Positions 2,227 through 21,403 of a DNA stretch of 21,462 bases are shown here, piece by piece. The position numbers were made by a program, and so were the translations under genes. Position 1 is the first letter of the stretch. Every line of letters begins with the position of its first letter. Below the pieces are notes generated by a model. That model did not search any database. It saw nothing but the letters and a program-made list of their open reading frames with translations, and was not told the origin of the DNA. The stretch comes from Ectocarpus siliculosus (lineage: Eukaryota > Sar > Phaeophyceae > Ectocarpales > Ectocarpaceae). The stretch lies in contig FN648767.1 of assembly GCA_000310025.1 (NCBI GenBank), positions 1 through 21,462 on the forward strand, written 5' to 3'.

Positions 2227-5200
2227 AGTCGTACTTGTCGTTCGATGTTCGAAATTTCACTCATCCTTTTGTGGTGCCTGGCTCTCTCACCGGAGAGATA
2301 GATATTTAGTTGAAGCGGCTTTGGTTTTGTTGCTTTTTTCGACAAGTACAGCTACATTATCCGCCTTGTCTTTCGCATTCAGCATTGACACCGGACCGAG
2401 AGCAACTACTGGCAGGTACTGCTGTTGATTTACTTCCGTTCGCAGCTTCGCCGCATGCAAGAGAAACGGCAGAATTAATCGAATCGTTGGTACTGGGTAC
2501 TGATCGGATAGATAGTTTTCACCACCTGGATTCAATATTTTTCGTGCGAGAAAAAACTCAAGAACGATATTGTTTGAACGCATATATTGCACATCGGCAC
2601 GGGGATCGAATTGTTATGGCATGGATCGCAGAGTAGTAGCAGGAGGATTTGGCCCCTCCGCTTTCGGCAGTACCGTCGAACGTCTACATGGACAAATAGA
2701 AATAAATGTTTCGTTGTTTCGGGCACTTGCTGCGAGCAGAGTATTTGAAATTTGAATTTTTGAATATTGTGGAGACCACCAGAATTATTGTCCAATGCAT
2801 GTGTTTGTGCCCTGCTGCAATCAGACGAGAGGCCCAGAGAACAACAGTGAAAGCATCCACCACACTCCGAACGAAGCCTGAAGAACGAAACCTCCCAGGG
2901 AATTAAAATTCTGTAGTCTATGCGTATGTATTTCCTCGCCTTTTTTTTCCGCCCGCCCCCGCCAAGATACTTGTAATCGACACAAGATAGATGGATTGCA
3001 TACACACGCACCGTATCTTCGTCGTTGTTGCCTCTTCTGTTGTATGACATTGGACAAATATCAAAATCTCCCCCTCTCCCCCTCGTTCGATCCACTGTGT
3101 ACGCCTTTCCTTTTCGTTCAGGACGAGAAGCGCTTCATGAAGAAGCTGGCAAAGGCGACCAAGAGCTCCCCCTCTGGTAGCGTCGACACTATCCGTGGGC
3201 TGGTGGAGGAGGCCGCCACGAAGGGCTTCCGCTCCGTCGCCATTGAGGAGGCGGCGATGGTAGTAGCAAAGCAGGAGCAGCAAGAGAGGGTCCTCGCATT
3301 CTTTAGGTGAGAGATGTGTGCAGACGCTGCTCGTCTTCCGTCATGTGTGTGTTGGTTTTTATTGCCTTCACACTGATGGCATGTGGTGTGAGACCCAGTA
3401 GTCATCCGTCGCCCCGAAAAGAAGCGGGCAATGAATACCATACGCCAGTGGAGTGCTTCCTGCATGCTTGGGTCTCTCGGTTAAAGGGCTGTGGAACAGA
3501 TGCATTTTCACTATGCCTTCTCGCTGTGTCTTTTTTTTTTCCGTGCAGCACCCCCTCCCCCCCCCCGCCCCCAAGTCTTGAGCATGGCTTTGACAGGTTG
3601 TTCGTGTATTGTTGGTGTTGAATTGTTGTTTTTCTTCACATTAAACTCGTGTCAGTTGCTAATCCCAAAATCTAGCAAAGACTCGGCCCGTGGTCACAAA
3701 AATGCTAAAGCCTATGTATGGTATGTGGTGAATTCTTCCCGCAGAAGTCCAACATCGGGGTTCGTATTCCGACGAGAGATGGTGCCACGGGCCATTCCCT
3801 CCCGTGTGTGCAGGTCTTGATTCTCCCCCGTACAACTGGAGCACTTCCTTTTCTTACGTACAGCGTCTCACAACATTTGTCCGTGCTTTGTTGCATGCAT
3901 CCTGTTTCCGTTTTCATATTATTATTATTTTCGGACAGGAGTCTTCCCGGCGCCGTTGTCGACTACGTCTCGACCACTTCGCTGGATGCTGCGGTAAGTT
4001 CTACCTCGCCTGTCATTTGCCGAATGATGCATTGATGATATACAATAGTATAAGGAGGGACAACTGTTGAGAAAAGCACTGAGACGCGTGGCCTCCACAG
4101 TTCTCGAGAACGCCTCGAGTGGTTGACCTCGCTTGGTGTGTTAGAGTACAGGGTTATTTTAGTTGATTCGCTGAGTCCTGATACTTACCGTCGATAAGAG
4201 AGCCGAGCAGCCTGCGTTATTGTCCCGTGTACTGTAGGGTGAGGGAGCGAGCTCAGCGGTTGTGACAGTGCCAAACCCCTGGGGTAATGTCGACGATGTA
4301 TCGTGAGATTCCGCTGTATTCAGTTGTGCCCGATGCGTGGAAACGTTGCAGCGATGTTGCGCCTGAAGTCTTGGTTGGTTATATCGAGAGCATTTTGTTC
4401 CCTCGTGGCTGCACCGAAAATCGTTCTTTCGACGTGTCTCCCCTACTATTATAGATACCCCGAACATTCACCCCATCCTCCCACACCCTTTCCCCCGCGC
4501 TGCCTCTCGTCCACCCCACCTTACCACCAGAGGCGCTCGAACGCCTTGAAGGCGGAAATTGTCAAGCTGAGGAACACCGTCAAGGACCTCACGAGGACTG
4601 TGCACGAGAAGGAGCTCATCTCCACGGCTCAAGCGAGCGCGCTCACGGCGGAGCAGGCCAAGTCCAAGGCGGACCGCAACGAGGCGGCCGCCGAGGCAAA
4701 GTACTTCCGTGACGAGGTGGAGGCGCTCCGAGCCACCGTCGATTACGTGCTGGAAACGGCCGCCTCCGACCACGAGACGTCCGCGAGGACGGAGGGCGAC
4801 CTCATCGCAAAGCTCGACACCGCCGAGGGCATCGTCGCCGCCCTCACCGACACCGTCGCCGAGCAGCAACTGGCGGCCCAGAAGGAGTCTGAGCGATCGG
4901 ACCTCTCCCTCCGCCTGGTCGAGCAAGAAGCGGCCATGGCTCGAGCATCCACGCTCGCTATAGAAGAGGAGCTGTCTGAAGCTGAGCAGCGCGAGATTGA
5001 GCTCCAGTGCCTTCTGGACGTGGGCACGGACACGAGGAAGGAGCTGGAGGATGAACTGGCCTTGTGCCGGACGAACGTAAGCAGCCGACATGGGAGTTTC
5101 GACAGCGATTGACGCTTGGCACTGCTACTGATGTCTGTATCGTAGCCTGGCACAACGAGAGCCATACATACGGCAACCCTTTTTATCCCCCCACCTCCCG

Positions 5201-8859: not shown

Positions 8860-8970
8860 TCAGAACAAGCCCTTGAGCTCCTCGATGATCGCCAAGATCT
8901 CGGGGTCGTCCTGGTACTTGGACATGGCGCTCATGCCGTTCTGGGTAACGTCTTGGATGGCGGCCATGAC
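8860..8970 (-). other. Final exon: C-terminal half of STI1 domain
   Basis: After the spliced NPK, this exon encodes VMAAIQDVTQNG, MSKYQDDPEI and ends EELKGLF-stop, 36 residues. The spacing AxQDVxQN, MSKYQ, then a helix matches the Hip C-terminus closely and Tic40 more loosely. The protein ends a few residues after the last helix, as family members do. The acceptor is TAG at 8971-8973 and the phase is 0. Confidence 0.8.
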
Positions 8971-11319
8971 CTACGTGCCGTCGCGTACACGCGGCACCAG
9001 GATATCAAAACAGGAGTAGAGGAAACACGCAACAACAATAAAAATGGTCGTCATATTTTGAAATGCACAGGGAGGGACAAGGGAGCATGTGGCGGCATGC
9101 TGATCATCAAGAGCTGTTTTACCTTATTATCAGTCCTCCTTCCTCACAATCGTTAAACCACTGTGTCCTTCCGAATCTGACAAACGGAAGAGAGTATGTA
9201 CAAATGCTCATGGCCTACGTCTGGGCGAAGGCGGGTGCACAGTGAGCCAGCCCAACTCTCTCTCTCTTGCAAGACAACCAAGACCGCATTTCGTCGACCT
9301 GAAACACGCCAATAAAACTTACCTTTGGATTGCTCTGCGCCTTCTGGAACGCCTCCATGGCCTTCGGGTTGTTCATCATCTTCCCGATCATGTCACCCAT
9401 GCCTCCCATCCCTCCGCCCCCCCCTCCTCCTGGCGCACCGCCCCCCGCCGCACCGCCTGCTCCTCCCATCGCGCCAAGAATGCTGCCGATGTCGAAGCCA
9501 CCGGCTCCCCCTCCCGCCCCGCCAGCGGCCCCGCCGCCGCCCCCGCCCATACCCCCGAGGCCGCTCAAGATGTCGTTGATGTTGACACCGCCCCCGCCCC
9601 CGCCCATGTTGGGCATCCCCCCGGGCATCCCGCCGCCGGGCATCCCGCCGGGCATGCCCCCAGGCATACCACCGCCGCCTCCGGGCTGCTGCTGTTGTTG
9701 GCCGCTGCCGCCGCCGCCGCTGCCGCCGGAGGGGTCGCTGTTCATCTTCTTCACCTACTTTCAGCAGCAAAAGGGGCAAACACCCGAGCCGCGGGGCGGG
9801 TAGGTGGTGGGAATCCTGGATGTTTCGTTGACGTGGATGAAACTGCTGAGTTGGGGGTGTGTGGTTAAATATGCCGTGCCTCAATGTCGAGTCAAAAAGG
9901 GCGTAGATACACTTGCCACACACATACCTCACCGGTGTTATCTACCGCATCTGCGATCACGATGGCTAGACAACAGTTGCGGTGGATGCGGCTACTTGTT
10001 TTGCCTTCGAAAAAGCGAGTTGGCGCCGGCTGAGAGAGAGGCAAGCGATTTTTTTCGCGGTTTGCAGGTGCCTTGCGTCAAGTGTTATCCAGGACGCAAA
10101 AAGTGTTGACGTGTCATCAGCACAATGAGAGGGGCGACGTCCAACAAGAGGCTCCATTCACTCTCTTCAAAGGCAAACGCCCCCTGGTCCCTTAGCACAC
10201 CCTCCAAACGCGAACAACACCAGGGGCACCGAACAAATATCAATGCGTCAAAATATTCCCAGATACCAACCCCTGGCTTGATTCCCGCGCCAACCTAGAC
10301 CCATCCCTGGGAGCATCTCTTCCAAGTCTTCTCCTCACCTCGACGTCCTTGTAGGCGGCGTCGGCCTTGTCTTGTGCCTGGGCGGATGCCCCCCCCCCGC
10401 TCCCAGCACCACCATCGGTGTCGCCGGACGATGATGGCGGAGGTGCGGTGATCCCCTTGGCCCTAGCGTCGACCAGGAGGTCAACGAATTCCGACTTCTC
10501 GAAGAGCCCTCGGTATCCGACCCCTCGCTCGTCGAGCTCCTTCTTTATCGCGGAGACGCGCATCGCGGAAACCTGCAACACCCGTGCCAAAGCGTGTGTG
10601 TGTGGGGTAAGTCGTTCGCTGGCATTGACAGCACCAAAACGGCTGACCACTATTGGCAACAGTCATTGGCGGTACCATAGGCAGAAGAGCAATAAAGAAC
10701 GCTGTCGAGTAGGAATCAGAGTACGCGTGCAATGTGTGCTATTGTGTAGGTGTATAGATTTGTGGTTCGGGGTACGGTTGTCGTATTCCGCAGGGCATCG
10801 AAGCGCATAGAGACGGGAATTGTGGAACCAGGGCATGGCGTTGACTTACAAACCACGGGACCTCCCGCAGGGGGGGGGGGGGCAAAAAGAGCAACGGTGA
10901 TGTAACACGAAACACGCAGGTGCACCTCTATTTACTAGCTGCGGAGGAATATAACCGGGTTTCTTTCACCACCTGGAGAAAGGGTTCCTGCCGTCGAGTG
11001 AGCAACAGCAAGAAATAACACTGCCGAGAAAGAAACAACAAGGAACACACCAACACGAAAAAACGTGCACTACGAGGCGAAACCGCGGAACAGACAATCT
11101 TGGCTCCATCAAGCCAGGTCACCTACCTCATCGGCGGCGTCTTCTCCGGCAGACGACGCTGCCTCCTCCTCCTCCTCCTCCTCCTCCTTCTCCTCCTTCT
11201 CCTTCTTCTCGTCTTCCGCCTCGGCCGTGTCAGCGGCAGCAGCAGGCGGTGGCGGCGTCGTCGACGGTTCCGACGAGACCTCTTCCTCGGCGGCCGGCTC
11301 CCCTTCATCGCCAGCCGCG

Positions 11320-11359
<40 letters not shown>

Positions 11360-12784
11360 CGTCAGTAGCAGCAGTGTCCGCGGCGTCAGAGCTCTTCTCT
11401 CCTCCCGCCTCCTCGGCCGAACCTTGTTCTTCCTCCTCTTCCACCGCATCACTACTCTCCCCTTCCAATGCCGCCTTCCCTCCCCCGTCTACCCTCGCCT
11501 CCGCGAGCTTCATCACGAACTCCGACTTCTCCAACAGGCCCACGTAGCCCACGCCCAGGGCGTCCAGCTCCGCCTTTATCTGCCCCGCGGTCATGCGAGC
11601 CTCCCTGATCTTGGCCGCCTGCGCGTCCACGCCGCCGCCCCCCCCAGAGGCTTGCTCCTCGGCGTCATCGTCATCACCAGCAGCAGGAGCGGCGTCGGTC
11701 TCAGAGCCTGCGTCGTCCTCAGAAGGCGGGTCCGTTGCGTCGCCGCCATTGACTTCGTCGACTTGAGGAGGCGTGGCGGCGGCGGCGGCGTCGCCCTCGG
11801 GAGCTGGCGTCGCGGCTTCGGTGGTCTCCGGAGCAGGAGTCCCGGGCTCCGTCGGCGTGTCTGCCGTCTCGTCCGCCGGCGGTGGGGCGGTGTCTTGAGC
11901 TACCGCCGCGGTCTCGGCCGTGTCCGGTGAAGGGGTCTCGGACGCCCGTGCGCTTGCCTCATCCTGGGCCGACAAATGAGTAATAGTGGTTTGTCATTGC
12001 GTTAGTTGCCATTGGGTTGGTTGACGTGGTGGAAGGATAAGGTTGTGTCAACATGTGTGTAGAAACCACCCGCCGCGAATGGAAATTGGAGCAGGAAGCA
12101 GAGGTCGCGCGCGGGGAAGCCAGTGGATCGCGCGGACTTCGAGATGGGTGCGCCACACGTCCCGTGCAGTCCCATATATTTTTTTCTTCTCACACGCCAC
12201 CTCTCTCTCGTCCACAGCAGTATACGCGTGGCGTAGCACAAAGTAGTGCAAACGCTCCACTCCACGTGCTCCAAATCGATCAGTTACCCAAAGCACTCAC
12301 CGTTTCCGAAGGAGTCGGCGGCGGCGCTTCCTTGTCCTCAGGGGGTGGTGAGACTACTTCCTCAACCTCATCCTCCTTCTCCTCTGCGGCATTCGGTGCT
12401 CCGGACGGGTCCATGGAAACCTCCTCTCCCGCCACCTCTCCCCCCTTCTCCTCTTCCTTCTCCCCCTCTGCGCTCGGCTCCGGAGTCTCCTCTTCCTGGC
12501 CAGCTGGCTCCTCTTGTTCGACATCATCAGAAGCAGCAGCAGCAGCAGCAGCAGCAGCAGGGGCCGCCGCCGCGGCAGCAGCTGTATCCTTTTCTGTTTG
12601 GGCAGCCTCTGCTTCGGCGGCTGCCTTCGTTTCGGCTTCGGCCATCTCGGCGAGAGCTTTCTGCTTCTCCTCTTCGACGCGCACCGCCTGGCACACCGGC
12701 GGGGGCGTTGACAACAGGAACAAACAGGGAACACAGATGAATGAGATGAATGAGATGAACGAGTATCTCATACCGAAGAGCACG

Positions 12785-12854
<70 letters not shown>

Positions 12855-15472
12855 CACAGACAGACAGAGACAGAGACAGAGAGGGCAAATAGGCAAAGGC
12901 GTGACGAATACCAAGGCGTTTCGCGTCTCAGTCGCATAAACCAAACACCAATACTGCTGCTGTCTCTTGTGCTGCCCCTCCGCGCAGAACCTTTCTGTAT
13001 TCAAGGTGCCCTCTCTCTTCCACAACACCACAAGAACCAACAACAACTTACGCATAACGCCTGGGTGTATTACTCCAGCCGGACGTTATCACAACATGTA
13101 CACTGCACGCAGCAGGGGGGCTTGGCTATTACACCACTGTACCTCTTCCTCCTCGGCCTTCATCTTGGCGGCCGCCTGTTCAGCGGCAAGTTCGGCCTCC
13201 GTGTCTGCCTGATGAGATACAACACACACACGCGCACACGCACACACACGCAACGCGAGCCAAGTCAGCGCGAGACTCAGCGGCGACAAGAATCGCGGGA
13301 TTTGTGCATTACCGCTAAATTTGGGAATTGAAGATAAAAAAAAAGTGAGCAATCACCCTCACCGTATGTTACTTGTGTTCGCGATAGATGAAGGGTACGT
13401 GGAGGGTGCAATCGCAAGGGTTGCCGTTTCAACGCCCATCAACAACATTTTGGCGAATCCTCCGAACGTGTTTGATACCGGGTATGCACGTATGTGTACC
13501 TGGGCCTGGGCTTCGGCAGCTATCCTGGCGGCCTCCTCCTTCTCTTGTTCGATGCGCAGCGCCTGATTGCGACGAACACCAACACGAGACACACCCATAC
13601 ACGAACACGCCGAGAAGAACAAGCGGTGTTGGTTCTTGATGGCGGCAGTGCCGGTGTACAACACGCTGTCAAAAAACAACAGCAAACAACGTGCTACCAG
13701 GCGGTCAATTTGTACACAATTCGAACACGCGAGCAGCGAACTAGCCCACCTCTTCGCGCTCGGCGGCGGCTTGGGCGGCCGCCGCCTCCGCCTCCAGCTT
13801 CTCCTTCAGCTCAGCAGCAGCCTTCTCCTCCTCGGCGGCGACCCTGGCGGCTGCTTCCTCCTCCGCCTCCTGGCGAGCCTTAAGCTCTTCCGCCTCTCGT
13901 CTCGCCTCTTCTTCGGCCCTTGCCTGTTCGGCTTGAGCCTCGGTGGCTCTCGCCGCGGCGGCGGCGGCTTTTGCGTCCTCTTCGAGCCTCGCCTTCGCCT
14001 CGGCCACAGCGTCGTCGGCCGCGGGCATGGACTCTCCGGCCTCCGTCGCAGACGGCGGTTGTCCGGCCTCCGGGCCGTCGGCCGCAGCCGCGGCCGCGTC
14101 GGTGTCGACCTCACCGCTCGCTGACGATGCCTCCCCGGCGGCACCATCGCCTGTTTCTGCTGGCCCTGTCTGCCCACCGCCTCCGCCACCACCGGAAACC
14201 CGAGCCTCTGCCAGCGCAAGCACGTACTCCGCCTTCTCCAGCAGGCCCACGTAGCTGACCCCTAGCGCGTCGAGCTCCACCTTGATCTGGCCGGCGGTCA
14301 TTCGCGCCTCCCGTATGCTGTCAATTTCCCGTTGGAGGGCGTCCGGGCCCCCTCCCCCCGCCGCTTCCTTGCCGTCGTTGCCGTCACCGCTGGACGAGGA
14401 GGAGAGTCTGATGACCGGCGGCCTCACGATCGGCGATCGCGCCCAGCCGACGCCGGCGGTGCGCACCCTGGGAGTGGAGTTGAGAGGGGATTGAAAAAAG
14501 TTGGCACGTGCGTATTAAACAAAACGTGAGTACATACACAAACATACACACACGAGTGATGGGGGTGTTTGCTGGCATGGAGAATGCCGCCCCGTGGACA
14601 ACTCTCTTAGCATCCTCACGGTGGCCTCACGGAAGCATAGGGTGCACGGACAGAGTCGTGGGAATCTACTGTACATGAACGACAGCTGTTTGAGTCTAAA
14701 ACTGCTATGGACACAGCAGTCGTCCTGCTTTGTTCACGAGGTCATTCACTTTTGGCATTGGTTAGCGCACGAGAGAATGAGAGAAGTCTACCAAGTGCTA
14801 CTTGTCGTCTTTAGGTTGCGTTCAAACGAGCGGCCAGAAAGGAAGGGACCGAGCCAGAGCGAGACCGACTCTCTGCTCGCACCTCGACTGCACGGGAACA
14901 CCGCCGCGTGTCTTTCTGTGCTGTAGTCTAGGGCAAGAACATGTGTCGGCGTTTTTTTTCACATATGCACCGCCATGGGGCGGGCCTGACCCCGCTGCAC
15001 ATGGCGTCAGTCACTACTGCTCTTTGGTCTGGTGCGTCGTGATGAGGGTTGTGGCTCTCTGTGCTGTAAATCTACATACGCATATGCGCACACATGTACG
15101 CAGGGGCAGATAAGATCATCATGTGTGTTCGTGGTTGATCCGCGTTGTCAAATGTTTGTTCTAGAAAGGACGTGGGGCGCGACTGAGAACAGCGGTGCAG
15201 CAGAGCAGCATCACACACGAACGACGTGGGACAAGACAAATCTCGCGCAACCAAACATGCACACAACATGCACGCCTGAATACAGCCACAAGATCGCACA
15301 CTCTGGGCGTTTACCTGCTCTGGTCGGCGGGCTGAACGAACGTCGTGCCGCCGGCAAGGCTGCGCAGTTGAAGTCGTGTCTTGGTCTTGACAGGAGTCAC
15401 GAACGCGAAGGAGCCCACGAGATTCCAAAGGGAGCCCACCACCGCCGCCAGCACCAGCATCCTAGCACTCAT
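8860..15472 (-). CDS. Probable plastid-targeted SAP-like/STI1-domain protein, Hip- or Tic40-like C-terminus (9 exons, ~1001 aa)
   Basis: Exons in transcript order (minus strand): 15472-15315, 14467-13750, 13562-13500, 13208-13143, 12687-12301, 11963-11127, 10572-10339, 9754-9323, 8970-8860; 3006 bases with TGA at 8862-8860. Intron 1 is phase 2 and the other seven are phase 0. Residues 1-23 are a signal peptide ending GSFA before FVTP, followed by a basic, Ser/Arg-rich stretch to about residue 80, as in bipartite plastid targeting. SAP-like motifs lie at 104-143, 583-622 and 744-784. Ala/Glu-rich coiled-coil and acidic spacers separate them. A Gly-rich segment with MPGG repeats (about 829-940) leads into an STI1 domain (942-1001). 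STI1 domains of Hip, Hop and Tic40 serve Hsp70/Hsp90/Hsp93 work, so a plastid co-chaperone role is inferred. A split into two genes at intron 7 (second ATG 9745) cannot be fully excluded. Confidence 0.72.
9323..9754 (-). other. Gly/Met-rich GGMP exon leading into STI1 domain
   Basis: Residues 822-965. After VKKMNSDPSGG come a short poly-Gln (840-844), MPGG repeats, and long Gly runs interrupted by two similar hydrophobic islands, VNINDILSGLGG and FDIGSILGAMGG. Then DMIGKMMNNPKAMEAF starts the STI1 domain. GGMP-type repeats directly before STI1 are a hallmark of Hip (ST13). The exon begins right after a TAG acceptor with GTG in phase 0, and its first ATG is codon 4, so it reads as an internal exon. 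Confidence 0.75.
10450..10572 (-). other. SAP-like motif 3 (residues 744-784), start of exon 7
   Basis: The exon opens directly with this motif: VSAMRVSAIKKELDERGVGY, then RGLFEKSEFVDLLVDAR. It keeps the Gly-Val-x-Tyr turn and the EKSEF core but is diverged elsewhere from motifs 1 and 2. The acceptor is a strong pyrimidine/CAG site and the exon is phase 0-0. Confidence 0.7.
11322..11355 (-). repeat. Triplet run coding poly-Ala in exon 6 of gene 2
   Basis: A (CAG)n-type run of about eleven units is read as GCT alanine codons on the minus strand, in the spacer between SAP-like motifs 2 and 3. A GAG/GAA-rich run nearer the exon end codes poly-Glu (around 11160-11200). Confidence 0.85.
11490..11609 (-). 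other. SAP-like motif 2 (residues 583-622)
   Basis: It begins IREARMTAGQIK as motif 1 does, continues ELDALGVGY, then EKSEFV and LAEARV. Only a handful of its 40 positions differ from motif 1, while the spacers on both sides are unrelated low-complexity acidic sequence. This implies a recent copy or strong constraint. Confidence 0.7.
12532..12560 (-). repeat. Triplet run coding poly-Ala in exon 5 of gene 2
   Basis: The plus strand reads (GCA)n. In the minus-strand gene the frame is GCT, giving about nine alanines next to further alanine codons. Length polymorphism would be in frame. Confidence 0.85.
12785..12882. repeat. GA/CAGA microsatellite in gene 2 intron 4
   Basis: A pure GA run of about 50 bases is followed by degenerate CAGA/CACA units. 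On the sense (minus) strand it is a long CT tract inside intron 4 (13142-12688), upstream of the acceptor at 12688. Confidence 0.95.
13143..13562 (-). other. Two symmetrical mini-exons (63 and 66 nt) of gene 2
   Basis: Exons 13562-13500 and 13208-13143 encode 21 and 22 residues of Ala/Glu-rich helix, each flanked by consensus splice sites and both phase 0-0. Either could be skipped without shifting the frame. The first, starting ALRIEQEKEEAAR, resembles the start of the following large exon (AVRVEEEKQKALAE), which suggests duplication. Confidence 0.75.
14197..14316 (-). other. SAP-like motif 1 (residues 104-143)
   Basis: The motif begins IREARMTAGQIK, passes through ELDALGVSY and ends in EKAEYV and LAEAR. 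The pattern is helix, Gly-Val-x-Tyr turn, Glu-Lys-x-Glu, helix, resembling SAP-like folds such as the C-terminal domain of ARMET/MANF proteins. It is nearly identical to motif 2. Its binding partner is unknown. Confidence 0.7.
15315..15472 (-). other. Bipartite plastid-targeting presequence, exon 1 of gene 2
   Basis: The chosen ATG (15472-15470) is followed by a 23-residue signal peptide with a Leu/Val/Ala core ending in GSFA. Next come Phe24 and Pro27 (FVTP), matching the heterokont ASAFAP pattern in which the residue after cleavage is aromatic, usually Phe. Residues 24-80 hold nine Lys/Arg and only one acidic residue before the Ser run at 75-79. The frame is open upstream, and another ATG at 15496 would add eight residues, but the shorter form is a better signal peptide. 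Secretion or ER residence remains possible. Confidence 0.65.
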
Positions 15473-15762
15473 GGCGGGCAGCCGCGTGTGGTCCATTTGT
15501 TTTGCCGAGAGGCGTGGTCTGCGTTTCGTGCACTGCCCTAGGATTTTAGGATGATAGGATGACACGTGTTGTCCTGAACTGCTGTGTGTCAAGGAACATG
15601 ACAACCAGCTGATGCTTTCGTCATTTCGGAGAGGTTCTAAATTCGAACCGCACATTCGGGAAATCGCTATTTGACCGCGTCTGGAAACCCGCATCTCTGC
15701 TCAGCTGTCCTCCGCCTATACGTGATGCTCGAGCTGTGTAGCCAGGGCTTCAGAACCTCGCA
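15473..15762. promoter_or_regulatory. Divergent promoter region between gene 2 and MOCOS
   Basis: Only 290 bases separate the two start codons, so both 5' UTRs and core promoters must overlap or lie here unless leader introns exist. An imperfect palindrome at 15557-15574 has GGA and TCC arms around a perfect ACACGTGT core (CACGTG, a bHLH/bZIP-type box, at 15563-15568). No TATA box is evident. Direction and use of the box are inference. Confidence 0.5.
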
Positions 15763-18700
15763 ATGCCTTCCCATGAAGGCCTAGGGGCCGGGACAAGCGA
15801 CATGTCCATGAGCGATGCCATGGGCTCGCCCCAAAAGATAGGCTTCGTCAGAAACAATCCGGAGTACGGCTACCGGTCAGTTGTCGAAGGCACTGCCGCT
15901 GCCGATGGCCTACACCGATTGCCCATAGACTCCATCCGCGAGCATGATTTTCCTAGCCTTCTACAGCCAGTAATTGACGCCACAGCGACAACGTCAACCC
16001 GTCGGCGGCGGCAGCAACACCAGCAGCAGCAGCAACAACAGGTGGACCTGGTTTACCTCGATCACGCAGGGGCGACCCTCTCCGGGGTCTCCCAGCTGAG
16101 GGAGGCTATGGAGCCCTTGCTTGCCGGGGCCGTGCACGGGAACCCGCACTCTCAGGTACGTACCTCAGACAGTTCTGGAGATTTGTAGCAGAATGTGTCC
16201 ATGGTACAGACAGGAGCCGACAGTTCTTCCACCCGCAGGAAAATGTTTGTGGCGCTCCGACATGTTGACTCAACACGAAAAGTATTTTGGTTATTTCAAG
16301 GGTTCGTACAAAACGGTCCCGCGAAAACAGAGAACTTGTAATTGACGAAATGCCCGAAGCATTGCTGTGAAGTACGCACACATGCTGATACGAAACAACG
16401 AAACATCAGAAAGTACTTGTGCCTCAAAACAGAGTACTCTCAAGTCTGCCGTAAGCTACGCCGAGGGCACAGAATCAACGAAGATGAGAGGGTCGGGCCT
16501 CTTCGTGGAAAAACTATGAATAATTTTTGACTCGCTCGTACAAAACATGACACACTTGGGGAGTGCGCGCGTACAAGGACTCCGCCCTGTTAGGCCACAA
16601 ATGCTGGGAAATCTTCTGTACAGATTGATATCACGACCTCCACCAAACCCATCCGGGATCAGAGGGCAGTCCTCCTTAACTCGTTTGGGCCTACAGGCGT
16701 ACTGACCGATCATTGATTGATCATTTGCAAATGCTGGTGTGGTGGCAAGCCGTGGAGGTAGTGTTGGAGACTGGTCCGAAAAATAAGGTTCGATACGATA
16801 CGCCGACCGTATCGAGACAAAAAACGTAAATACCGATATTTTGTTCCATGTTCTGAAAATGGCTCGATACGTATCGAGTATCGATAATCGATATCGATAC
16901 GACTGTTTTGAAGGCCGTGGGTTACAAGAGCGAGCGTTATGCAACCACACGTACCTTGTCACACCCAAACCCTATCGGAAGTACGCATCAGACGTGCGCA
17001 CATGGTCCCGCAGCATGGAAGTAGTAGTGGTGTGTTCAATATGGACATCACGAACACAACAGAGTCACACGCTGTGATGTGATGTGGCCGCGAAGCAATA
17101 CCGCTGTTCGCCATCGTGCAAGAGGCAGGGTGGTTGTGTCGCGGTGTAGTGTAGACCAGATAATTTTACGTTGTACCGCCAAGTGTTTATGTGTGCATAC
17201 ACTGTACTGTTGCGATCGAATCAGAGCAAGCTCAGTTGCCTCTGCAAGCAGGTTTTCATGGCAATGGGGAAAAAACTTGAACATTTCTTTCATATCTTAG
17301 TACTTCGAACTATGCATACATGTTGGGGCTGGACTTCAAACTGAAACGTGGGAAACGTCTGCCGCATACAATCGGCTTTTAGCAAAGGGTTGGGCAGGAA
17401 GTTTGCGAGGTCTATCGTTTTCGGGGATACGTGCTCTTCTCCTTGCGCGTTGTCTCCACTCTGAGGTGCGGCCGCTGCTTCGGCCGCTTGGCAAGCGGCA
17501 GCAACAGCGGCAGAGGGAGCTGGTTCGTAGGAAGACACGTCCACCGCAGAGGCAGCGCTATCTCCGTCTCCACTGATAATTTAGGCTATACTGAAAATAG
17601 CGTAGCTGAAGCAGCTACACGACTAATCATTTCAAGGTCTACAAGGCTACCTGCCCTACCGGCCGCAGCGTGACCACCCGTCAACCCTTCTACGACTCTG
17701 TCTGTGGCCACCACCCTGTCGCGGGCTGCTCGCATGACCTATTGGTGGAGATAGCTGTTGCGTCTACAGAACTACACTTTGCCTCCTTCTCTGCACTTCT
17801 GTCTCTTTTTTTTTCTGCGGTGGAAAAAACCAGTTGACGTCGAAACGGAGCGTAGGCCCAAAGGGGTTGTTAACCAAGCAACAACACCCGACCCCCAACG
17901 TTTTGACAGGGTCCCGTCGCAACCGTTACCGGAGAACGCATCGACGCCGCCCGCCACGCCGTCCTCCAACACTTTGGCGTGTCCCCCCAAGAGTGGAGCG
18001 TGGTGTTCACTTCGGGCGCGACCTCTGCCCTGAAGATGGTCGGCGAGCAGTTCCCTTGGCGACGACATCGAAGGGGAAGCGGAAGGGGGGGGTCCCGTTT
18101 CGTCCACGCGCGGAGGAGCCACAGCTCGGTTCTCGGCATCCGTGAGTACGCCCGCGCCGCTGGTGCCGGCGTTCAATGCATGGACTTGGAACTCGGCGTG
18201 GACGGCGTTGTTGGTAGTAGGGGCAGAGGCTGCTACGTCTCGTCGACGTATGCTGAGGACGACCGGGCGGGAGGGCAGGTAGCACGGGGGAGGTGGGAGG
18301 GGGAAGTGCGGGACGAGAAGGGGGTACCGACGGAGAGAGACACATACTGGTGCGATAGTGGTGGTTGCAGCTGTGGCGAAGCTAGCGGCGGGGGTACCCG
18401 CTCAGGAAGACCGATCAACACCAGCGCCAGCACGGCTGTTGGCATCTCTACCTCTGGTTCGAATGGCGACGACAACCACACGGTGAACAACGGAGGAACT
18501 AGTGGCGGTAGTAGATATGGCGGCGGTGATACCAGCAGCGACAGCGACAGTGGCAACACCGACGCTGAGAATGACGAAGACGACGGGCGGGTCGTGCACT
18601 CCCTGTTTGCTTTTCCCGCAGAGTGTAACGCCACGGGCTTACGTGCCGACCTGGGCATCGCCGGGCGCGTGAAGCAAGGGGCCCTCTCTACGCCCGGACA

Positions 18701-21403
18701 TAGCTGCCGGCGCTCCCACGGCCGACATCGCCGGAACTCCGACTGTCGCCATGGCGGCCATCTTTCTTGTTCTCACCATGACTGCGGAGAATTCGCTATT
18801 CCTCGCCATGCCACCTCACCAGGCCATGTCAGAAACACCCATGCCGATAGCGATAGAGGCCGGCGAGCTCTGGAGGGGCTCGACTCTGACCGTCTCGACG
18901 ACACCAACGATTCCGGAGAAGAGGGAAGAAGAGATGACGATGAACCGGCTATTTCGGGCGACAGGCCACGACGAAGGCGGCGGCGGCGGCGGCGGCGGCG
19001 GCTCGTGGAACGGTGGTGGGTGCTGCTAGACGCAGCAAAGTTTGCGGGCACGGCGTCGCTCGACCTGTCCAGCGTCGAGGCGGATTTTGTTTGTATATCT
19101 TTCTACAAGATGTTCGGGTGAGTTTGTTGTGGCTCTTGTCGAGTGCGGCGCTTGTAAGCCAAGGGGTCCAATATTGTGGCGAGGAGAGCAAAGATCAGGA
19201 AACCGAGTATGTTAAACGCGTCCTCGCGTTGTATGTGGTGTTGGACAAGTACCCCGTGCCACAGCTGTGCCCACGACGGTAAGGCAAGACAAGCTGCACT
19301 ACAACTCTCCCGTCGCTCCACCGGTCTCTTTCCATCCTTGCCTCACCCTCCTCCTCCTCACCGCAACCGGCTCGGCCGAACCAAACGTCTGCATCACCTT
19401 AGCTACCCGACCGGCCTTGGCGCCCTGATCGTTCGCGAGAGCGCCGCGCACGTGCTCCGAAAGCTTTACTTCGGCGGCGGCACCGTGGCGGCCGCCCTTG
19501 CCGGCGGCCCGTTTCGACAGCTTCGTCCGGAAACGGAACGGCGGCTCACCGACGGCACCGAAAACTTTCTCGGCGTCTTGGCTCTCCAGGTATGTGCGCC
19601 ACGGCGGCAAAGTCGGTCGATAAGACGAGAGAGACAGGAGAGGGCACACGCGCCGGGGGCGAGAGAGAGAAACGTTGGAATGTTTGTGTGATACTTTGCT
19701 CAGGTTTGCTTGGCTCTTAAGTACGGCACAGGGTGATACGCGCGCACGCTATCACTCTTCGCCGCGCACGTATTGCTGTCGAATTTTGGTTCTTGTTCGT
19801 TTTGGAATTCCACGCTCGTTTTTCCTGTCTCTCCAACAACGACAGCGCGCTGCGCTGAATTCCGCTGTCTTCAGGCGGGGTTTGGGGCGCTGACACGCGT
19901 CGGTGGAATGCAGGCAATCGCCACCCACACGTCGTCCCTGGCGCGCTATCTATACGCGCAGCTCTCATCGCTGCGGCACGCGAGCGGAGAGCCGGTGCTC
20001 AGGTTCTTCGGCAGGTGGGACGGGGAGGCATCGGGGGCGGGGTCGGCACCACCGGCATCAGCACCGCCACCACCAGCAGCACCGCGACAGGCGCCACCGT
20101 CAACAGTGTCGCCAACGATGTCCCCTGCTATGGCGGGGCCGATGGAGTCGGGGGGCGATTTACCGAATGTGTCAGGCGCAGCAGAGAGAAGGAACGGAAA
20201 CAACGGCCGCCCATTCCAAGAGACGCGAGAGGCGGAGCAACGACGGGAAGCAGAAGCCGACGGGGTCGGGGCAGAAAAAGCGGGCCAGGGAGTGGCCGAC
20301 ACCGAAATAAAGCGACACAGCCTGTTCGTGGGGCAGGGGCCGGTGCTAACGATGGCCTTTCTCCGGCCAGGCGGGCAGCACGTCGGGCACGCGGAGGTGG
20401 AAAAGATTGCCAGCCTCGAGAACATTCAGCTGCGGACGGGCTGTTTCTGCAACCCGGGGGCGTGCCAGTCGGCTCTCGGCCTGACGGATGACGATGTTAA
20501 GGAGCACCTGGAGCGGTGAGTCGAGAGATAAATAGCATGACGTTCGGCTTCCGTTGAATTTTGTCTCTCACCATAGCTTGCGGGCGAGAAAAAATGCAGG
20601 GTGCTTGGTACAATACGGTTTCGATGTTGCGCACGGAAGGGTGTTCAAAGGAAAGGAATTCCTTTGACTTTTTCCGGCGGATGGGATGTGGTGTGTTGCG
20701 GTGATGGCGTGTTTGTTGGGTATAAACGACACCTTGTTACTTCTCGATATAGGCATGACCCTAAGATGTCGCCGAGGCAGAATGACCTCCTGGCCTTGCT
20801 TTGGGTGACTTTCACGTGCCTGAACCATGCTTGGTAGTTTCTCTCTCTCTCTCCCCCCCCCTCTCTCTGCCTCTGTCTCTCTCTCTCCCTCTCTCTCTCC
20901 CCCCCCCCTCTCTCTTCCTCTCTTTGTAGCCGCTAGGTGGTGCTCACATTTCTTGCTGTTCTCGCTTTTGTTTTTATCCCGCCGCCACAACAAAGAGGCC
21001 ACGTCTGCTGGGACGAGCACGACCTCATCGACGGCCGGCCTACCGGCCTGGTTCGAGTGTCGCTGGGGTGGATGTCAACCTGGGAGGACGCCGCCGCCTT
21101 CGTGACCTTCGTTAGGAAACACTTCGTCTCCACGACACCGCTGCAGGTCCGCTGTTGGAAAGGCTCCTGCTGCTGCTGCTGCCGTGGTTTCGTTTGTTAG
21201 TTTCTATATGCCGTCCTATTTGTTTGCGAGCTAGCCGCACCTCATCCCGGTCCCCGCCGCTCCCACCTTATCCTCTTCGACGCTGCCCTCCACAGAACGA
21301 CAATGCAACCTCCCCCCTTGTGAAACGTAGCCTGGGCCGGCGTAACTCTGGCTCATCCCTGGGTTGTAGAGGTGTGCGGTCACGGTCTAGCGGAATGCGT
21401 TGA
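15763..21403 (+). CDS. MOCOS: Molybdenum cofactor sulfurase, NifS-like domain (6 exons seen; 3' end uncertain)
   Basis: Exons: 15763-16155, 17910-19117, 19403-19589, 19875-20515, 20996-21146, 21296-21403; 895 codons if the TGA at 21401-21403 is the true end. Junction phases 0,2,0,2,0 all match. An in-frame TAG at 15739 supports the ATG. The family is a PLP enzyme that moves sulfur from cysteine to the molybdenum cofactor of xanthine dehydrogenase and aldehyde oxidase. Visible motifs: YLDHAGATL (98-106), NPHSQ (127-131), VVFTSGATSALK (162-173), FAFPAECNATG (364-374), LLDAAK (503-508), SFYKMFG with PLP Lys531, YPTGLGAL (535-542), FGGGTVAAA, RTGCFCNPGACQ (783-794; Cys786 or Cys788 region as in ABA3), GHVCWDEHDLIDGRPTG. 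Insertions at about 224-358, 392-499 and 646-742 enlarge the domain. The MOSC half found in animal and plant enzymes is absent from the window; the last exon may instead splice onward. Confidence 0.9.
16011..16041 (+). repeat. CAG/CAA run coding poly-Gln in MOCOS exon 1
   Basis: It encodes residues 84-93 (mostly Gln, one His), between DFPSLL and the conserved VYLDHAG start of the catalytic domain. Interspersed CAA codons interrupt the pure CAG run. Confidence 0.85.
16156..17909 (+). other. MOCOS intron 1 (1754 bases)
   Basis: This is the longest intron in the window, joining NPHSQ to GPVATV in phase 0 with donor GTACGT and acceptor TGACAG. It is AT-richer than the exons and holds a palindrome cluster (16791-16900) and an antisense open stretch (17290-17580) of uncertain meaning. 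No MOCOS exon is missing between its ends, because the conserved sequence continues directly across the junction. Confidence 0.75.
16791..16900. repeat. Cluster of CGATA/TATCG palindromes in MOCOS intron 1
   Basis: A 7-bp stem with a 5-base loop lies at 16796-16814 (CGATACG / CGTATCG). A perfect 16-base palindrome CTCGATACGTATCGAG occupies 16863-16878, followed at once by a near-palindrome of TATCGAT units to 16900. Such inverted units could be part of a small non-autonomous element, but no target-site duplication or outer terminal repeat was found. Confidence 0.7.
18968..19002 (+). repeat. GGC run coding poly-Arg within MOCOS
   Basis: A (CGG)n run gives about eleven consecutive arginines (residues 485-495) at the end of the second insertion, shortly before the conserved WWVLLDAAK segment. 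Confidence 0.85.
20839..20926. repeat. CT/C-rich microsatellite in MOCOS intron 4
   Basis: Alternating CT runs and two poly-C blocks lie some 70 bases upstream of the acceptor at 20995, on the sense strand. Confidence 0.9.

What the first reader, a model, noticed from the sequence alone, without database searches (positions are those of the whole stretch)
8860..15472. New-looking domain combination: plastid presequence, three SAP-like motifs, GGMP repeats and a Hip/Tic40-type STI1 end
The exon chain, phases and motifs are read directly. GGMP plus STI1 is known from Hip, and a plastid STI1 co-chaperone (Tic40) is known in green plants. A secondary-plastid protein carrying Hip-like GGMP-STI1 but with SAP-like motifs in place of TPRs would be a distinct chaperone adaptor, possibly for Hsp70/Hsp93 in the plastid. 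The chaperone role is inference.
Basis: partly seen in the sequence, partly recalled or inferred. Interest (0 to 1): 0.78.

Follow-up and report, generated by a model that had tools for sequence, protein, structure and literature searches.

The report
Plastid-bound SAP-GGMP-STI1 chaperone helper gene
An alga's nuclear gene encodes a protein, apparently sent to the plastid, that joins three SAP-like modules, an Hsp70-tail-like GGMP repeat and a chaperone-helper STI1 end, and a second shorter gene with the same SAP-plus-STI1 plan hints at a small family of plastid Hsp70 helpers built differently from the known ones.

Summary
On the minus strand, 15472-8860, nine GT-AG exons join in one frame into 1001 residues: signal peptide with an A|F junction, basic stretch, three SAP-like motifs, a long charged Ala/Glu region, five GGMP units and an STI1/DP end (Pfam PF17830 passes when scanned alone, not within the whole protein).

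(1) A second gene in the same genome (contig C101, about 240 aa, spliced by eye) also reads leader, SAP motif, STI1, so the combination is not a one-off. (2) Exact GGMPGGMP coding occurs at 7 places in the 189-Mb assembly: this gene, its two broken partial copies, and the tails of four Hsp70 genes. (3) The third motif's top PDB match, not significant (E 0.25), is the MANF SAP domain crystallised on the ATPase domain of the Hsp70 BiP.

Best explanation: a soluble Hip-like plastid co-chaperone with SAP modules in the role of Hip's TPR. Targeting, Hsp70 binding and function are inferred. It fails tested features of Hip (HipN, TPR), Tic40 (membrane anchor, second STI1) and MANF (CxxC). New variant of a known kind; eukaryotic protein databases could not be searched.

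The parts
15404..15472 (-). signal peptide, residues 1-23 (by eye)
   Evidence: strongest hydrophobic 19-residue window of the protein starts at residue 7
15315..15403 (-). rest of exon 1: F24 and first part of the transit-peptide-like stretch, which runs on into exon 2
   Evidence: A|F junction, no acidic residue until D50
13750..14467 (-). exon 2
   Evidence: AG..GT borders and frame
14188..14328 (-). SAP-like motif 1 (in exon 2)
   Evidence: 77% identical to motif 2
12604..14010 (-). charged Ala/Glu-rich region, residues 206-363, spread over exons 2-5 (introns included in this span)
   Evidence: composition 61 A and 45 E of 158
13500..13562 (-). exon 3
13143..13208 (-). exon 4
12301..12687 (-). 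exon 5
11127..11963 (-). exon 6
11490..11636 (-). SAP-like motif 2 (in exon 6)
10339..10572 (-). exon 7
   Evidence: 4.3% and 4.7% differences to the two copies
10441..10572 (-). SAP-like motif 3 (in exon 7), closest to MANF SAP and to the C101 motif
   Evidence: exon-intron borders with GT and AG at both ends in 3 of 3 copies; 584 bases, intron 1 is longer (847)
9323..9754 (-). exon 8
9612..9673 (-). GGMP repeat
9323..9394 (-). first part of the STI1/DP domain (residue 942 on)
   Evidence: PF17830 stretch 942-997
8860..8970 (-). exon 9: rest of the STI1/DP domain and stop
   Evidence: same 36 residues in 3 of 3 copies

Best explanation
One gene encodes a soluble, nucleus-encoded co-chaperone carried through the ER into the secondary plastid (leader read from sequence; transport inferred). 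In the stroma its SAP-like modules, above all motif 3, dock on the nucleotide-binding domain of the plastid Hsp70 (DnaK) and hold it in the ADP, client-bound state, as the SAP domain of MANF does to BiP and as Hip does to cytosolic Hsp70 (inferred). The long charged Ala/Glu region is a spacer or oligomerisation rod (inferred). The GGMP repeat resembles the tail of this genome's own Hsp70s (likeness shown; role inferred) and the STI1/DP end offers a hydrophobic groove for client helices (known for the domain class; inferred here). In short, a Hip-like Hsp70 attenuator built with SAP modules instead of TPRs; the shorter C101 protein would be the minimal form.
For: Intact nine-exon frame. Leader with F at +1, the mark of import into red-type secondary plastids; a second gene with the same kind of leader. 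STI1 domain over cut-off when isolated, and over cut-off in the C101 protein; a profile of the two finds Tic40 at E 4.4e-9 (one residue of the C101 row was later taken as intron-derived). GGMPGGMP coding at 7 places only: this gene, its two copies, four Hsp70 tails; reversed-pattern control 0. Motif 3 finds MANF SAP first in the PDB; residues R133, K138, E153 of MANF, which face BiP, correspond to R, K, E in motif 3 and in C101. No membrane span besides the signal peptide. dnaK and clpC are listed as plastid-encoded in a brown alga.
Against: The MANF match is not significant (E 0.25; 0.51 with a four-sequence profile), motif 2 finds nothing, and the C101 motif finds a nuclear-type SAP chain (E1B-55kDa-associated protein 5, E 0.72) instead and passes the general SAP model. 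E153 is the same in 10 of 10 SAP-like sequences compared and so says nothing; motifs 1 and 2 have T at the R133 place. In full MANF R133 makes contacts within MANF, not with BiP. The AlphaFold model of motif 2 is poor and finds no fold. PF17830 is below cut-off in the whole protein. Plastid DnaK has, to my knowledge, no GGMP tail, so the repeat may have no partner there. No expression, localisation or binding data.
Confidence: 0.42

Rival explanations
1. Tic40-like import factor: the STI1 end acts on ClpC/Hsp93 or Hsp70 at the inner envelope while preproteins come in, and the SAP modules serve to dock on the translocon.
For: Tic40 is the best PDB sequence for both STI1 domains. Tic40 was reported from a haptophyte, though not from the heterokont Nannochloropsis.
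Against: No membrane anchor in the mature part and one STI1 stretch, whereas Tic40 has a single membrane helix and two such domains. The PDB holds few STI1 structures, so 'best PDB match' is a weak guide.
Confidence: 0.22
2. Nucleic-acid-linked adaptor: the SAP modules bind plastid DNA or RNA, as classical SAP domains do, and the STI1 end brings a chaperone or client there.
For: The C101 motif passes the general SAP model (24.2 v 23.9 bits) and its one PDB hit is a nuclear-type SAP chain (E 0.72).
Against: In this gene motif 3 prefers ARMET_C (15.8) over SAP (12.4), both below cut-off. The mature protein is rich in Glu and Asp (14.5% and 6.4% against 4.7% Lys and 3.1% Arg).
Confidence: 0.15
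3. The same kind of co-chaperone, but working in the periplastid space (remnant cytosol of the engulfed red alga) or the ER, on a eukaryotic-type Hsp70 with a GGMP tail.
For: GGMP tails belong here to eukaryotic-type Hsp70 genes, which fits a eukaryotic-type partner better than DnaK.
Against: F at +1 is the stromal mark. Of six Hsp70 5' regions fetched I read four, and none shows an A|F leader.
Confidence: 0.12
4. Two genes: a leader-SAP gene (exons 1-7) and a separate GGMP-STI1 gene (exons 8-9) starting at the ATG near 9745.
For: Exon 8 has an early in-frame ATG, and intron 7 has a stop in that frame directly before exon 8 in the window copy.
Against: The borders of intron 7 are kept in 3 of 3 copies, phases fit, and the C101 gene independently reads SAP followed by STI1.
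Confidence: 0.07

Closest known systems
Hip (ST13, Hsp70-interacting protein)
   Same: GGMP repeats followed by a C-terminal STI1/DP domain, with a charged region before them (domain order of Hip from PMC13149161, passage)
   Different: plastid-type leader; no HipN and no TPR found; SAP-like motifs instead
Tic40 of green plastids
   Same: STI1 domain of plastid co-chaperone type, best PDB match (2lnm) for both genes
   Different: no membrane anchor, one STI1 stretch, GGMP and SAP-like motifs present; Tic40 features from PMC5296341, passages
MANF/ARMET C-terminal SAP domain
   Same: motif 3 aligns over 32 residues without gaps, including the EKS(E/D) loop
   Different: Y-x-G-L/I in place of the MANF C-x-x-C, score under the ARMET_C cut-off
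C-terminal tails of cytosolic-type Hsp70
   Same: GGMPGGMPNMGG here, GGMPGGMPDMGG in 3 of the 4 Hsp70 tails of this genome; the fourth reads GGMPGGMPDMSG
   Different: no EEID end and no Hsp70 domains

Membership tests
Hip (ST13) | N-terminal HipN domain | tested here: not met
   Pfam scan of the whole protein at E up to 10 lists only STI1-HOP_DP and ARMET_C
Hip (ST13) | TPR domain | tested here: not met
   none in the same scan
Hip (ST13) | GGMP repeats | tested here: met
   five units; pattern search
Hip (ST13) | C-terminal STI1/DP domain | tested here: met
   33.2 v 29.1 bits isolated; 26.6 in the whole protein
Hip (ST13) | stabilises ADP-bound Hsp70 | not testable with these tools
   needs purified proteins
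Tic40 | single membrane helix in the inner envelope | tested here: not met
   outside the signal peptide the most hydrophobic 19-residue windows are poly-Ala or Gly-rich or lie in the SAP motifs, at most 1.35 on the Kyte-Doolittle scale
Tic40 | two C-terminal Hip/Hop/Sti domains | tested here: not met
   one PF17830 stretch
Tic40 | binds Tic110 and stromal chaperones | not testable with these tools
   the Tic110 search found nothing and its control rang nowhere, so it is uninformative
MANF/ARMET | ARMET_C score over cut-off | tested here: not met
   15.8 v 23.5 bits for motif 3
MANF/ARMET | C-x-x-C in the SAP domain | tested here: not met
   Y at the first place and L or I at the second in 4 of 4 motifs
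SAP domain (PF02037) | score over cut-off | tested here: inconclusive
   window motif 3 12.4 v 23.9: not met; isolated C101 motif 24.2 v 23.9: met, but 19.6 in its whole protein
STI1/HOP DP domain (PF17830) | score over cut-off | tested here: met
   isolated C-terminus 33.2 v 29.1, below cut-off in the whole protein (26.6); C101 whole protein 32.9
Stromal proteins of red-type secondary plastids | signal peptide, F at +1, transit peptide | tested here: inconclusive
   features read by eye and by composition; no predictor (HECTAR, ASAFind, SignalP) could be run

The most novel reading that the evidence does not exclude
A plastid class of Hsp70 co-chaperones, with a long and a short form in this genome, in which MANF-like SAP modules replace Hip's TPR as the clamp that keeps Hsp70 in its ADP state, joined to an Hsp70-tail-like GGMP repeat and an STI1 client groove: a re-invention of Hip for a secondary plastid whose DnaK is plastid-encoded.
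Probability: 0.3. Interest if true: 0.78.

Novelty: new variant of a known kind. Interest (0 to 1): 0.56.

Why it matters
How red-type secondary plastids regulate their own DnaK/ClpC chaperones and draw proteins in is little known (my judgement). Tic40 was reported absent from the heterokont Nannochloropsis oceanica (PMC3499364, passage) and present in the haptophyte Chrysochromulina tobin (PMC4226036, passage). A SAP-STI1 pair of genes with plastid-type leaders gives a concrete candidate, and if the reading is right it shows that one and the same chaperone brake can be built on a different Hsp70-binding module.

Tried and rejected
Membership in Hip, Tic40 or MANF was rejected on tested features. 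Fold of the SAP-like motif: model of motif 2 with mean pLDDT 66.3 from three sequences, best Foldseek match E 5.2, meaningless; the second structure job was not used, and the STI1 domain could not be folded because it is split by an intron. Viral-contig scans with the C101 STI1 segment and with motif 2: 12 and 76 pattern matches, no relative. NCBIfam and PADLOC: nothing. Tic110 in the genome: nothing, control uninformative. The genome search with PF17830 did not list this gene itself, because the domain is split by intron 8; so the HipN miss in the genome does not prove that the alga lacks Hip. The copies on C298 and C329 were considered as working paralogues and rejected: C298 holds part of exon 6 to exon 9 with frame breaks in exons 6 and 7; C329 exons 7-9 with a frame break in exon 8; I saw no leader exon in the stretches fetched. 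The breaks lie partly in base runs, so assembly error is possible. A comparison with the C-terminus of Hip itself was not made: no Hip chain appeared among the PDB hits. In PMC5462543 (ochrophyte plastid proteome) the main text has no 'STI1', 'Tic40', 'chaperone' or 'SAP domain'; PMC2765969 has no 'dnaK', 'clpC' or 'chaperone' in its main text. Supplementary files were not open to me.
Full report
The gene. On the minus strand between 15472 and 8860 nine exons join in one frame, with GT-AG borders at 8 of 8 introns, into 1001 residues. Every exon is richer in G+C than every intron. Two other places in the 189-Mb assembly hold parts of the same gene: C298 (part of exon 6 to exon 9) and C329 (exons 7-9). 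Over exons 7, 8 and 9 C298 differs from the window at 10 of 233, 14 of 429 and 1 of 111 bases, C329 at 11 of 234, 9 of 393 and 0 of 111; silent and replacing changes, read in the window's frame and leaving out codons with gaps, are 12 and 13 for C298 and 10 and 10 for C329, a rough dN/dS of 0.34 and 0.31. The last 36 residues are the same in all three. Both copies lack the 5' part and have frame breaks, so I take them as decayed duplicates. From intron 8 onward C329 is identical to the window (0 of 352, 0 of 111, 0 of 54), while its exon 7 and intron 7 differ by 4.7% and 3.6%; this points to recent exchange or to an assembly effect.

The leader. Residues 1-23 look like a signal peptide; residue 24 is F after A, and the first acidic residue is D50. 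F at +1 after the signal peptide is the known mark of import into red-type secondary plastids (PMC4329603, passages). The genome is that of a light-harvesting eukaryote (72 LHC matches at E up to 1e-8). In 3 of 3 LHC loci read, S-A-F stands near the start of the open frame; their first exons were not resolved. That the organism is a brown alga is my recollection of such LHC sequences and gene style, not a tool result.

The modules. The C-terminal 65 residues pass PF17830 alone (33.2 v 29.1 bits) but not within the whole, compositionally biased protein (26.6). Best PDB sequence: Tic40, E 2e-6. The three SAP-like motifs are clear repeats of each other (77% and 55% identity to motif 2) but reach neither the SAP nor the ARMET_C cut-off. 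Motif 3 finds MANF first in the PDB, not significantly (E 0.25; 0.51 with a four-sequence profile); motif 2 finds nothing at E up to 10. A structure model of motif 2 was too poor to use.

The second gene. A genome search with motif 2 gave, besides this gene and its copies, one more place, C101 (E 0.006). Read out by eye, L005 2748-5763 on the minus strand holds six exons with GT-AG borders that fit in phase: a leader ending in SGMA|FVGIG, a basic stretch, one SAP motif 57-61% identical to motif 3, and an STI1 domain over the PF17830 cut-off (32.9 bits). Its SAP motif alone passes PF02037 (24.2 v 23.9; 19.6 within the whole protein). The splicing is my own reading. The STI1 domains of the two genes are 36% identical, and a profile of both finds Tic40 at 4.4e-9. 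The order leader, SAP, STI1 thus occurs in two diverged genes, which argues against a chance fusion and against two separate genes in the window.

GGMP. The DNA pattern for GGMPGGMP was sought without mismatch in the whole assembly: 16 matches at 7 places, reversed-pattern control 0. Three places are this gene and its two copies. The other four lie just past the last Hsp70 matches, where the frame reads like GGMPGGMPGGMPDMGG followed by KIEEID; three end at EEID and one reads nine residues further. Apart from its own copies this gene is the only one other than Hsp70 found with the exact repeat; looser repeats, repeats split by an intron and withheld stretches would be missed. Hip carries GGMP repeats and TPRs and stabilises ADP-bound Hsp70 (PMC2779461 and PMC13149161, passages).

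Mechanism. The SAP domain of MANF docks in the cleft between subdomains Ia and IIa of BiP's nucleotide-binding domain, prefers the ADP state and attenuates nucleotide exchange; a superposition suggests that DnaK in the ADP state has room for it; binding of the R133E and E153A mutants was too weak to fit (PMC6358605, section 7 and passages). On the alignment R133, K138 and E153 (residue numbers mapped by me) correspond to R, K, E in motif 3 and in C101, and to T, K, E in motifs 1 and 2. Against this: E153 is the same in all 10 SAP-like sequences compared, including one locus with a rififylin-like ubiquitin-ligase domain match; K or R at the K138 place is found in all 10; the R-and-K pair is found in 4 of 10 (motif 3, C101, a C17 protein with a strong ARMET_C match, and MANF). 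In full MANF, R133 makes contacts within MANF instead of with BiP. I therefore treat Hsp70 docking as a hypothesis that fits three separate hints (GGMP, STI1, MANF-type SAP), not as shown. STI1 grooves bind helices in Hop and Dsk2, and Hip and Tic40 are counted to the same class (PMC13083955, passages). dnaK and clpC are listed as plastid-encoded in the brown alga Coccophora (PMC5695614, one passage), so a nucleus-encoded regulator of a plastid-encoded chaperone would be a sensible arrangement. The 18 Hsp70 matches in the assembly (E up to 1e-20) include no uninterrupted full-length one, so plastid DnaK seems not to be in it.

Novelty. No paper with 'SAP domain', 'STI1' and 'plastid' together was found (0 papers); broader searches (listings, most capped) showed none on this combination. 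Supplementary tables and eukaryotic protein collections were not open to me, so the protein may well exist elsewhere as an unnamed entry. I file it as a new variant of a known kind: a Hip/Tic40-type STI1 co-chaperone with a different set of partner modules.

Noticed in passing
L005 2748-5763 (contig C101, minus strand): Second gene with plastid-type leader, one SAP motif and an STI1 domain (about 240 aa). Its last exon, like that of the window gene, is 111 bases long and begins GTC ATG GCC in phase 0, although the protein alignment does not put the two introns at the same place.
   Followed up: partly
window 15742-20516 (+): Neighbouring gene on the other strand: one open stretch (17907-19118) matches Aminotransferase class V (24.4 v 21.5 bits); by eye a molybdenum cofactor sulfurase type (recalled, not tested).
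   Followed up: partly
L003 4319-5137 against window 4288-5112: On C298 the broken copy of this gene is preceded by a diverged copy of another stretch of the window (by eye), in a different arrangement: a rearranged segmental duplication.
   Followed up: no
L004 intron 8 to 3' flank (contig C329): Identical to the window from intron 8 onward (0 differences in 517 bases) but 3.6-4.7% different in intron 7 and exon 7: recent exchange between copies or an assembly effect.
   Followed up: partly
L006 3006-4418 (contig C8, minus strand): Another protein with two STI1/DP stretches in one 471-residue open frame (46.7 bits); leader and remaining exons not read.
   Followed up: no
L007 (contig C26) and L009 (contig C17): Other ARMET_C-type SAP domains: C26 with a rififylin-like domain match and at least two SAP-like motifs, C17 with a strong ARMET_C match (49.3 bits) that keeps C-x-x-C.
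   Followed up: partly
G000 contigs C92, C232, C488: Runs of light-harvesting genes with the same model score: 10, 3 and 5 matches, which suggests recent tandem copies or collapsed/expanded assembly.
   Followed up: no
L020 (contig C12, Hsp70 tail): One of the four GGMP-tailed Hsp70 frames reads nine residues past EEID before its stop, while the other three stop at EEID.
   Followed up: no
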